Source: Geoalkalibacter halelectricus
GTDB taxonomy: Bacteria; Desulfobacterota; Desulfuromonadia; Desulfuromonadales; Geoalkalibacteraceae
Direction of reading: 5' to 3'
Length of the DNA: 64,000 nt
Assembly (NCBI RefSeq): GCF_025263685.1
Contig: NZ_CP092109.1
Location: forward strand, 3,225,001 to 3,289,000
Shown: piece after piece, positions 26,568 to 30,717 of the stretch
Layout of the letters: each line of letters opens with the position of its first letter
Position numbering within the stretch: position 1 is the first letter of the stretch
Notes under the pieces: model-generated
Seen by the model: the letters and a program-made list of their open reading frames with translations, nothing else
Databases searched by the model: none
What the model was told of the DNA's origin: nothing
Program-made: the position numbers and the translations under genes

Positions 26568-26650
26568 TGCATTAAGGTGGACAGCCACGCACTGACGAAA
26601 GAGAGGTTCCAATGAGCAAAACGAAACGCAAGCGCTATTCTGCCGAGTTC
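26568..26650 (+). mobile_element. IS3-type insertion sequence scar (5' end of orfA)
   Basis: ATG 26612, with GAGAGG upstream, starts the peptide MSKTKRKRYSAEF. This is the standard beginning of IS3-family OrfA transposase-like proteins (a helix-turn-helix protein whose next residues are normally K-A-K-V). After 13 codons the similarity stops abruptly where group II intron sequence begins. The GGACAGTGCA...GGTGGACAG stretch before it may be the left end of the element. The rest of the IS is missing. Confidence 0.6.
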
Positions 26651-26759
26651 GTTCCCCGGCTCTCATAACCTCAACTTCTCGAACCGCCCGGTGCGGACCC
26701 GCATGCCGGGTGGTGTGGGAGGGGAGCGGTCAGAGAGCCTGACCGCCCCCTATCCCGAT
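26651..26759 (+). mobile_element. Group II intron 3' end (domains V and VI), remnant
   Basis: GAACCGCCCGGTGCG-GACC-CGCATGCCGGGTGGT (26681-26715) folds as a domain V hairpin: a 9-bp lower stem, a two-base bulge, a short upper stem and a four-base loop. It is followed by a second hairpin, GCGGTCAG / CTGACCGC (26726-26746), and the ending CCTATCCCGATT, as at the 3' end of bacterial group II introns of the GAACCGCC class. The maturase gene and 5' domains are absent. The intron fragment directly abuts the truncated IS3 orfA. Confidence 0.6.
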
Positions 26760-27472: not shown

Positions 27473-30400
27473 ATGGGGAGTCATGAGAGGTATGGGAATT
27501 CGTGGTGCGTGAAATGGCTGCTTTGCGGCCTTTTCGCGTTGGCGCTGGCAGTGTTCGGTGCCTCCGGCGCTTGGGCCTGGAATGGAGGTGGTTCATCCAC
27601 ACCGATGATCAATTGCTCGGAGTGTCACGGTGCCGATGTGGCGCAGCGCCACCATGAAACGCCGTGGTTTTTCCAGGGCGAATGCTTTCGCTGCCACGAG
27701 GGCTTTTCCACCGAGGGCGACTGCTCGAGCTGCCACGGCTTCGGGCTGCAGAACGTGCACCATGAGGTGCCCGATGCCCTGGCCGGCAACTGCGTGGCCT
27801 GCCACAGCGGGGTCGGCGACCTCGGCGATTGCCTGAGCTGCCACCAGGGCAAAACCCAGAACCGCCACCATGAAATCGCCGCCGCCGGCGTGTCCTGCGT
27901 CTCCTGCCACAGTACCATGTCGGCCGATACCTCGTGCCAGAGCTGTCATGCCGGCTCGGTGCGCGAGCGCCATCACGATCTGGTCGATACGGCCGGCATG
28001 GCTTGCGCGTCCTGCCATGTGGATATCGTCGTCACCACCAGCTGCCAGAGCTGCCATCAGCCGGGTCAATCGCAAGACGCCCACCACGCCTACGGTGCGG
28101 CGCAGAATGTCGATTGCACCAGCTGTCACGCCATGCTGCAGCCCGAAACCGGCTGCGCAAGCTGCCACGGCGCCGAATCCAACCGCGATCAGCATCACCT
28201 GTTGGTCGACAGCCGCGGCCTCGATTGCGCGAGCTGCCACACGCAGATGACCTCGACCAGCGGCTGCGCGAGCTGCCACAGTTTTCCGACCTATGCGCAA
28301 AACCTGCACCATGACAGTGCGATTCTGTCCAGCTATGGGTTGGGCTGCTTCGATTGTCACGACTACGAGTTCACCCCCGTTCTCACCATGACCATGCCCA
28401 CCTCCGCGCAGTGCGTGCACTGCCATACCACGGTGGTGGGCAGCGGCTCCATCGTCGATGCGCATCACACCACCGACGCCTTCTTCGCCGACAACTGTAC
28501 CCTGTGCCATGTCGGGGCCGATCAGGGCATCCAGTCGTGCAACGACTGCCATGATTCGAGCAACGGCACCGTCGGCGATCGCCACCACGCCCTTGATCTT
28601 GCGCTGCAAGGTCAGTGCACGGTGTGTCACGTCGGGGCCGACTACACCTTCCTCGACTGCCAGAGCTGCCATACGGGTAGCGGGCAGCCGGCCATCAACG
28701 ATCTGCACCATATGACCATTCCCGCCCAGATGGGCGATTGCGTCTCGTGCCACGTGGGTGCCGAGGTCGAAGGCCTCGATTGTTCGAGCTGCCATTTCGA
28801 CTCGGGTTCGCCCCTGGCCGCCGAGCGCCATCATGCACTCCAGGCCTATCTCATGGGGCAGTGCCTGCACTGCCACACGGGTGCCGAACCGGTCAACATC
28901 AGTTGCGCGGCCTGCCACGGCAACCCCAACCATCACGGTCAGCCCGCGGCGATCATGGGAGACTGCATCTCCTGCCACAGCACCATCAAGACCTCCGGGG
29001 ACAGCTGCCAGGCCTGCCACACGGCGCCCATTCCCGAAATCCATCACGGCGATCCCCTCATGCAGGTGGGTGGTGATTGCAGCGTGTGCCATCAGGCGGC
29101 CAGCACGGTGATCTCCTGCGCCGACTGCCACATGTCCGACCCCCATCATACGACCATGCAGTCCCAGATGGGTGATTGCGCCCACTGCCATCAGGTGCCG
29201 GCGCATGCCATGGATCGCCCTCATCAGGCCGCCTGCCTCGAGTGCCATGGCGCCTACATGCACGACAAGGGCGGACCGATCCAGAACTTCGGCGCCTGCG
29301 CGGCCTGCCACGACACCAAGCCCTACCACGCGGCCCCGCGTACCATTCCTGGTTACACCGGCTATGGGGCGGGCAAATACAAGTTCAACATGTTCTGGTC
29401 CATGTACGCCATCAAGGAAGGTCCGGGCGAGAAAATCCGCCCCAACGGCGAGGACATGAAGGATAAGGGCGGTTTCAAGATCGCCGCGCAAACCATTCCT
29501 TTCAATGTCGCCACCATCGAGCATGGGGGGCGGGCCTATCTCGTGCCCCATTTCGACGATGCCCAGAACCTGGGTGATCTGTCGAAGTGCACGACTTGCC
29601 ACGGCAACCGTGGCGATAAGGTCAAGTGCTCCAACAGCAAATGGCGCGACCATCGGAGTCGCAACCGCGTCGATTTGGCCACCTATCGCCTGGCCGAAGC
29701 CGTCTACCTCGGTTCGCTGTGCGATTCGGACGGTGGCGCTATCGCACCTGTCCCCGACGGTCCGAACCTGGCCCTCAACAAGCCGGCCAAGGCTTCGCAT
29801 CAGCAAAGCGGCTATCAGGCCTCCCTGGCCGTGGACGGCAATCCCGACACCCGTTGGTGGGCAACCCGCACCAGCGACGTGACCTGGGAGGTCGACCTGG
29901 GTGCCAGCTACCCCCTCACCACCTTTGCTATCGACTGGTTCAGCAATCTCTACGCCACGGAGTACCGGATTCATCTGTCCAACAATGGCAGCAGTTGGGA
30001 CCGGGTGCTGGAGGTCAAGGATAGCAACGGCGGCTACGAGGTGCGCTCGATTCCCACCCGCACTGCCCGCTACGTGCGCATTGAATTGCGCAACAACAGG
30101 TCTCGGGATGGTTTCTCCATCAGTGAGTTCGAGGTTTATGGCGAAAGCGCAACTCTGGACCCTGGCCCCACGCCGATCAGCCCGAATCTGGCCCTCAATC
30201 GCACGGTCAGCGCTTCGCACCAGGAAAGCGGCTATCGCGCTCCCCTGGCGGTGGACGGTAGGCTCGATACCCGCTGGTGGGCCAAGCGCGAAAGCGGCGT
30301 GACCTTCCAGGTGGATTTGGGCACCACCCATCCCGTCAACCTGATTGTCATCGACTGGCACCATCTCCATGCCCGGGAGTACCGTATCAATGTTTCCACC

Positions 30401-30565
30401 GATGGGCGCAACTGGACCCGCATCATGGAAGTCAAGGATGCTCCCGGAGGGAGGGAGGCGCACATGATTCCCACCCGCAACGCCCGTTATGTGCAACTTG
30501 AATTGCGCCGGTCTCAATTCAAGGATGGATTTTCCATCAACGAGTTTGAAATTTACGCACAGTAG
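27473..30565 (+). CDS. Secreted 31-heme cytochrome c with two F5/8C domains
   Basis: 1030 residues. ATG 27473 follows AAGGGAG and begins a signal peptide (hydrophobic 15-33, cleavage after AWA35). I count 31 CxxCH heme sites between residues 48 and about 708, spaced as near-repeats. Many are followed by an HH pair (QRHHE, NRHHE, DAHHA), which could supply the second axial ligands, as in the stacked hemes of OmcS/OmcE nanowires. Two F5/8 type C (discoidin-like) domains follow, about 763-895 and 903-1030, each with the pattern NLALN...SGY...LAVDG..DTRWWA...VDLG and ending FSI.EFE(V/I)Y. These usually bind sugars or cell surfaces. No membrane anchor is seen. Likely role: outer-surface or extracellular electron transfer, tethered to exopolysaccharide or mineral. 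It stands alone, closed by a strong terminator. Confidence 0.95.
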   Translation: MGSHERYGNSWCVKWLLCGLFALALAVFGASGAWAWNGGGSSTPMINCSECHGADVAQRHHETPWFFQGECFRCHEGFSTEGDCSSCHGFGLQNVHHEVPDALAGNCVACHSGVGDLGDCLSCHQGKTQNRHHEIAAAGVSCVSCHSTMSADTSCQSCHAGSVRERHHDLVDTAGMACASCHVDIVVTTSCQSCHQPGQSQDAHHAYGAAQNVDCTSCHAMLQPETGCASCHGAESNRDQHHLLVDSRGLDCASCHTQMTSTSGCASCHSFPTYAQNLHHDSAILSSYGLGCFDCHDYEFTPVLTMTMPTSAQCVHCHTTVVGSGSIVDAHHTTDAFFADNCTLCHVGADQGIQSCNDCHDSSNGTVGDRHHALDLALQGQCTVCHVGADYTFLDCQSCHTGSGQPAINDLHHMTIPAQMGDCVSCHVGAEVEGLDCSSCHFDSGSPLAAERHHALQAYLMGQCLHCHTGAEPVNISCAACHGNPNHHGQPAAIMGDCISCHSTIKTSGDSCQACHTAPIPEIHHGDPLMQVGGDCSVCHQAASTVISCADCHMSDPHHTTMQSQMGDCAHCHQVPAHAMDRPHQAACLECHGAYMHDKGGPIQNFGACAACHDTKPYHAAPRTIPGYTGYGAGKYKFNMFWSMYAIKEGPGEKIRPNGEDMKDKGGFKIAAQTIPFNVATIEHGGRAYLVPHFDDAQNLGDLSKCTTCHGNRGDKVKCSNSKWRDHRSRNRVDLATYRLAEAVYLGSLCDSDGGAIAPVPDGPNLALNKPAKASHQQSGYQASLAVDGNPDTRWWATRTSDVTWEVDLGASYPLTTFAIDWFSNLYATEYRIHLSNNGSSWDRVLEVKDSNGGYEVRSIPTRTARYVRIELRNNRSRDGFSISEFEVYGESATLDPGPTPISPNLALNRTVSASHQESGYRAPLAVDGRLDTRWWAKRESGVTFQVDLGTTHPVNLIVIDWHHLHAREYRINVSTDGRNWTRIMEVKDAPGGREAHMIPTRNARYVQLELRRSQFKDGFSINEFEIYAQ

Positions 30566-30585: not shown

Positions 30586-30622
30586 AAAAAAGCGGGGGCC
30601 TTTTTAAGGCTCCCGCTTTTTT
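30586..30622 (+). terminator. Intrinsic terminator of the cytochrome gene
   Basis: AAAAAAGCGGG-G-GCC / GGC-T-CCCGCTTTTTT with the loop TTTTTAA: a stem of about 14 bp including one G-U pair, and a T-run, 21 bases after the stop. Confidence 0.88.
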
Positions 30623-30717
30623 CTGTCCAGATGGTATCTTTTTACCTAGTGTGGGGTCACGAGCCCATGCTTAACGGTGGCTCCAGATGGGCAATATTCG
30701 CGTAAGCAAGGAATTTC

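What the first reader, a model, noticed from the sequence alone, without database searches (positions are those of the whole stretch)
27473..30565. 31-heme secreted cytochrome fused to two discoidin-like (F5/8C) domains
I count 31 CxxCH sites in one exported polypeptide, many followed by HH pairs as in nanowire-forming cytochromes. The 270-residue C-terminus consists of two F5/8C domains, which bind sugars or surfaces. Electron conduit plus built-in adhesion module is an unusual fusion and could anchor a heme chain to exopolysaccharide, cellulose-like material or a partner cell.
Basis: partly seen in the sequence, partly recalled or inferred. Interest (0 to 1): 0.85.

Follow-up and report, generated by a model that had tools for sequence, protein, structure and literature searches.

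The report
Giant heme wire with sugar-binding end
An iron-breathing bacterium makes one very long exported protein that carries 31 hemes, probably an electron wire, and ends in two sugar-binding-type domains; relatives carry up to 87 hemes and often the same hook, so the fusion is real and recurring rather than a one-off.

Summary
Confirmed. One uninterrupted ORF (27473-30565, 1030 aa) has a Sec-type signal, 31 CxxCH sites and two C-terminal F5/8C (CBM32-type) domains. An 83%-identical ortholog in a sister species has the same 31 hemes and two F5/8C domains, so a frameshift or misassembly is excluded. The histidine ledger closes: across four Geoalkalibacter homologs exactly 60 His are invariant, 30 in CxxCH plus 14 HH pairs and 2 singles, one distal ligand for each of 30 core hemes. 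The gene belongs to a family held together by a conserved C-terminal heme 'cap' (16 of 136 genomes of the order), with 6 to 87 hemes per chain. Thirteen members end in F5/8C; others end in CBM-like, Ig or TIG domains, or plain tails. The F5/8C domains match chitosan-binding modules of a Paenibacillus chitosanase best by sequence and predicted fold. Six-heme members share their N-terminal region with OmcZ, a nanowire cytochrome, and three F5/8C members sit directly behind GEMM-I riboswitches. Best reading: an extracellular, covalently continuous heme chain held in the biofilm matrix or on a glycan surface by its C-terminal hooks. Heme stacking and sugar binding are not shown; the heme part could not be modelled (pLDDT 38).

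The parts
27473..30565 (+). whole gene: exported 31-heme cytochrome with two C-terminal F5/8C domains
   Evidence: open frame, 31 CxxCH, 2 F5/8C; same-architecture ortholog in G001
27473..27577 (+). Sec-type signal peptide, residues 1-35 (AWA|W), no lipobox
   Evidence: hydropathy and motif scan; inferred, no signal-peptide predictor run
27614..29311 (+). heme core, hemes 1-30: repeats of two CxxCH plus one HH pair (residues 48-613)
   Evidence: motif map; 30 distal His invariant among 4 homologs
29168..29554 (+). family-defining C-terminal heme cap (QAACxECHG...HDKGGPIQ...GACAACH...FxxxFWS...YxVPxF)
   Evidence: found in 16 of 136 genomes of the order, same 16 in the class search; alignment A3
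29588..29602 (+). CxxCH of heme 31 (residues 706-710), separate from the core; present in G001a and G004, absent in G001b and G003
   Evidence: alignment, ORF reading
29765..30139 (+). F5/8C domain 1 (CBM32-type)
   Evidence: Pfam, AF2 model pLDDT 90.6
30185..30556 (+). F5/8C domain 2 (CBM32-type)
   Evidence: Pfam; predicted fold matches chitosan-binding module 4zy9, Z 24.1, rmsd 1.0
30586..30623 (+). terminator-like hairpin with T-run after the gene
   Evidence: read from sequence

Best explanation
The protein is secreted, loaded with 31 c-type hemes and works outside the outer membrane as a covalently continuous electron-hopping chain. Two-heme units, each with one HH pair, are strung head to tail, so chain length is set by the number of units. 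The C-terminal F5/8C domains hold that end on a polysaccharide, most likely the organism's own biofilm matrix or another glycan-rich surface, and so keep the wire in place. Shown: ORF, signal-like N-terminus, motif count, conserved ligand ledger, family, domain fold prediction. Inferred: export beyond the outer membrane, heme stacking into one chain, and polysaccharide binding.
For: Thirty core hemes are matched by exactly 30 invariant distal His, the pattern of bis-His hemes. The relation hemes = 2 x HH + 2 (+1 for heme 31) holds exactly for the 31-, 31-, 30-, 30-, 75-, 26-, 6-, 6- and 6-heme members, and for three more (22, 33, 33 CxxCH) once a CX4CH site is counted. F5/8C domains: sequence and predicted fold both place the Paenibacillus IK-5 chitosan-binding modules first; that module binds chitin, chitosan and cellulose (PMC12154041), and a related F5/8C binds polysaccharides (PMC2789033). 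Members without F5/8C often have other extracellular binding-type endings: CBM-like, Ig, TIG. GEMM-I riboswitches lie about 60 bases before the likely start codons of three F5/8C members. Own genome: four GEMM-I sites, one before an OmcZ ortholog and one before a filamentous-haemagglutinin-like protein. OmcZ is matrix-associated in Geobacter (PMC8683041).
Against: The heme part gave no usable model (pLDDT 37.6), so stacking is untested. No sugar-binding residue was tested. No GEMM riboswitch precedes the window gene itself. The gene stands alone between a secF-like gene and an rRNA-methyltransferase-like gene, with no other multiheme gene in the window. Some members deviate from the ledger by one or more: G105a, G026, G124b and both 87-heme proteins, and a subgroup (G083, G081b, G124a) lacks HH repeats altogether.
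Confidence: 0.55

Rival explanations
1. The F5/8C domains do not stay on the working wire: like the C-terminal Ig domains of OmcZ, they serve folding, export or assembly and are cut off, and the heme part then acts alone or polymerises.
For: OmcZ full length is predicted to have C-terminal Ig domains that are missing from the filament (PMC9473688). Six-heme family members share the OmcZ N-terminal region (39% over 152 aa) and one tested carries a Big_7 Ig domain before F5/8C. The own genome has a subtilase-like gene behind a GEMM-I riboswitch.
Against: The ending is swapped between unrelated fold types, and plain tails also work, which fits a binding role better than one assembly role. CBM32 domains are known as binders.
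Confidence: 0.2
2. The hook binds something foreign: chitin or chitosan, plant or algal polysaccharide, or the glycan coat of a partner cell, placing the wire on a particle or partner.
For: Closest structures are chitosan-binding modules, which also come in tandem (DD1-DD2).
Against: Resemblance of fold does not fix the ligand. No polysaccharide-degrading gene was noticed beside the gene. The GEMM-I-controlled genes point to biofilm.
Confidence: 0.15
3. Electron store (capacitor) or soluble reductase rather than a wire: many hemes buffer charge, and the end domains only keep it near the cell.
For: Heme-rich extracellular cytochromes can hold charge (general knowledge); very variable heme number, 6 to 87.
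Against: The strict two-heme repeat and fixed ligand ledger suggest a regular geometry.
Confidence: 0.1

Closest known systems
OmcZ (Geobacter nanowire cytochrome, PDB 8d9m/7lq5)
   Same: extracellular multiheme, HH pairs, C-terminal beta-sandwich domains; six-heme members of the new family share its N-terminal region (E 3e-7 to 8d9m; 39% over 152 aa to the own-genome OmcZ ortholog)
   Different: the window protein has 31 hemes in two-heme units, its own cap and CBM32-type ends; direct similarity to OmcZ is weak (A5 profile E 4e-6; unit profile 37-40 bits against 22-26 for motif-preserving shuffles)
DSOUD_0664, 69-heme extracellular cytochrome of Desulfuromonas soudanensis (PMC4914508)
   Same: predicted extracellular, giant heme number, Desulfuromonas group
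   Different: its sequence was not compared here; no carbohydrate-binding domain is mentioned in the passages read
CBM32 chitosan-binding modules DD1/DD2 of Paenibacillus IK-5 chitosanase (4zxe, 4zz5)
   Same: fold and sequence of the C-terminal domains
   Different: there fused to a glycoside hydrolase, here to a heme chain
12-heme cytochrome 3ov0 and sixteen-heme cytochrome 1z1n
   Same: single-chain multiheme proteins; best solved matches to the heme profile
   Different: similarity is mostly the CxxCH pattern; no sugar-binding ends in the solved chains as far as I know

Membership tests
F5/8 type C (CBM32-type) domain | profile match above curated cut-off and jelly-roll fold | tested here: met
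   PF00754 125.8 bits against cut-off 28.2, two stretches; AF2 pLDDT 90.6, 4zy9 Z 24.1
CBM32 in the functional sense | binds a carbohydrate | not testable with these tools
   needs a binding assay
c-type multiheme cytochrome | CxxCH sites with matching distal ligands and export signal | tested here: met
   31 CxxCH; 30 invariant distal His for 30 core hemes; signal-like N-terminus
OmcZ family | 8-heme architecture with OmcZ-type N-terminal domain | tested here: not met
   31 hemes; OmcZ only a weak match to the heme profile. The six-heme relatives do share the N-terminal region
polymeric cytochrome nanowire | subunits polymerise with hemes stacked in one chain | not testable with these tools
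   heme-part model failed, pLDDT 37.6
cap-bearing giant cytochrome family defined here | conserved C-terminal heme cap of about 130 residues | tested here: met
DSOUD_0664 type | sequence homology | not tested
   sequence not identified among the held loci

The most novel reading that the evidence does not exclude
A lineage that grew an OmcZ-related building block into single-molecule wires of genetically set length (6 to 87 hemes, up to tens of nanometres) and capped them with exchangeable sugar-binding hooks, so that bacteria moor ready-made wires in their matrix instead of, or beside, polymerising subunits.
Probability: 0.3. Interest if true: 0.85.

Novelty: new variant of a known kind. Interest (0 to 1): 0.62.

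Why it matters
How conductive cytochromes are retained in electroactive biofilms is not settled. A family that builds the anchor into the wire, and varies chain length and anchor type separately, makes that question directly testable: delete the hook and ask whether heme protein, conductivity and biofilm are lost. Chains of 75 and 87 hemes would also be among the longest covalent heme arrays reported, to my knowledge (69 in D. soudanensis, PMC4914508).

Tried and rejected
Frameshift or misassembly artefact: rejected by the intact ortholog. Heme stacking by AlphaFold2: failed, pLDDT 37.6 with seven rows. Riboswitch before the window gene: none at E up to 1; the only match was a group II intron end. 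Literature for multiheme plus discoidin, type C domain or galactose-binding: no paper describing this fusion found; the one 'type C domain' hit is a separate protein in a Desulfovibrio cytochrome cluster. Searches covered open-licence papers only. Descent of the two-heme unit from OmcZ: suggestive only. Single origin of F5/8C in the family: the cap tree needs 3-4 label changes, so gain and loss or swapping is likelier.

Full report
Observation. The ORF at 27473-30565 is real, with 31 CxxCH sites, a signal-like N-terminus and two F5/8C domains. Shuffled composition gives 0.3 CxxCH on average. No other frame of 60 aa or more in the window has a CxxCH.

Origin. The window lies in a complete 4.13 Mb genome. 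A held genome of the same genus (G002) has a contig of 49203 bases, the same length as NZ_JAUVWH010000006.1, Geoalkalibacter sp., and both carry the same six-heme homolog, so the host is very probably a Geoalkalibacter, an iron-reducing genus of Desulfuromonadales.

Anatomy. Between successive HH pairs there are always two CxxCH. In four homologs exactly 60 His are invariant: 30 proximal in CxxCH, 28 in 14 HH pairs and two singles, H597 and H619. Each of the 30 core hemes thus has one candidate distal ligand. Heme 31 stands apart, with a conserved downstream His (H727) as a plausible partner. The relation hemes = 2 x HH + 2 (+1) also fits the 75-heme protein of G004 and the six-heme proteins. 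Three members with 22, 33 and 33 CxxCH fit once a CX4CH site is counted. G105a, G026, G124b and the two 87-heme proteins deviate, and G083, G081b and G124a have the cap but almost no HH pairs.

Family. A C-terminal cap of about 130 residues defines the family. It occurs in 16 of 136 genomes of the order; a profile search of 277 genomes of the class found the same 16. A pattern-based scan of 84,980 species gave 15 loci, three of them distant ones labelled Deltaproteobacteria. Intact or near-intact frames have 6 to 87 CxxCH, with values such as 22, 26, 30, 31, 33-34, 38 and 75 between. Thirteen end in F5/8C, two of them after an Ig-like region and one after a CBM-like region; others end in a CBM-like domain, an Ig domain, or Gly-rich or acidic tails. 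Of the three distant loci two have TIG-type ends and one has none. The cap tree needs about four changes of the F5/8C label. F5/8C of this type was found in 12 of 136 genomes of the order, all of which hold the family. Some of these copies sit in 4-heme or heme-free secreted proteins. One unrelated 13-heme protein in another family of the phylum also carries F5/8C.

Paralog. The same genome holds a second copy without F5/8C, broken into a 24-heme and a 6-heme piece 1.3 Mb apart, with its signal peptide out of frame. That the two pieces were one gene is inferred from their fit to the intact plain 30-heme copy in G001. Residues 49-448 of the window gene are 92-98% identical in DNA to the broken copy, dropping to 67% beyond, which indicates recent gene conversion of the heme cassette.

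Hook. Profile search puts the Paenibacillus IK-5 chitosan-binding modules first (E 6e-35). The predicted tandem (pLDDT 90.6) aligns with them at Z 24 and rmsd 1.0, against Z 20 for the next CBM32. Published work reports that this module binds chitin, chitosan and cellulose (PMC12154041). The ligand here is not established.

Context. GEMM-I riboswitches precede three F5/8C members; the 3' ends lie about 60 bases from the likely start codons. Rfam does not tell c-di-GMP from cGAMP sensing. In the window's genome four such sites precede an OmcZ ortholog (E 2e-55 to 8d9m), a filamentous-haemagglutinin-like protein, a subtilase and another exported protein; the last three names rest on reading the sequence. 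None precedes the window gene. Link to OmcZ: the six-heme members share its N-terminal region; for the two-heme units of the window protein the likeness is only suggestive.

Mechanism. Best reading: a secreted covalent heme chain moored by sugar-binding ends. If hemes stack as in OmcS (about 0.8 nm per heme, from general knowledge), 31 hemes would span about 24 nm. Stacking, location and binding are inferred; the heme part could not be modelled.

Verdict. Observation right; rarity overstated within its family, but the family itself appears undescribed in the papers that could be searched.

Noticed in passing
window 26612-26759: Start of an IS3-type transposase orfA (MSKTKRKRYSAEF), cut short and followed by the 3' end of a group II intron (RF00029, 37.8 bits against cut-off 40): a mobile-element relic just upstream of the gene.
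   Followed up: partly
L005 9366-10934 (-) and L006 9316-9957 (-): Second paralog in the same genome, split into 24-heme and 6-heme pieces 1.3 Mb apart, signal peptide out of frame near a poly-G run; a tract of it is nearly identical to the window gene.
   Followed up: partly
L054 2826-9101, L064 7304-13777, L023 7867-13476: Single frames with 87, 87 and 75 CxxCH, the first two ending in F5/8C.
   Followed up: partly
L139 2-1330 (-): OmcZ ortholog in the window's genome behind a GEMM-I riboswitch; other riboswitches precede a filamentous-haemagglutinin-like protein, a subtilase and an exported protein.
   Followed up: partly
L125 626-3184, L127 432-3023, L129 5281-7941: Group of 4-heme secreted proteins with two F5/8C domains each.
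   Followed up: no
L019 2-7377: Very large multiheme frames (17 and 10 CxxCH) lie directly beside the G001 ortholog on the other strand.
   Followed up: no
L099 4454-10792: 79 CxxCH in one frame of an uncultured Deltaproteobacterium, with the cap, few HH pairs, and a TIG-like end.
   Followed up: no
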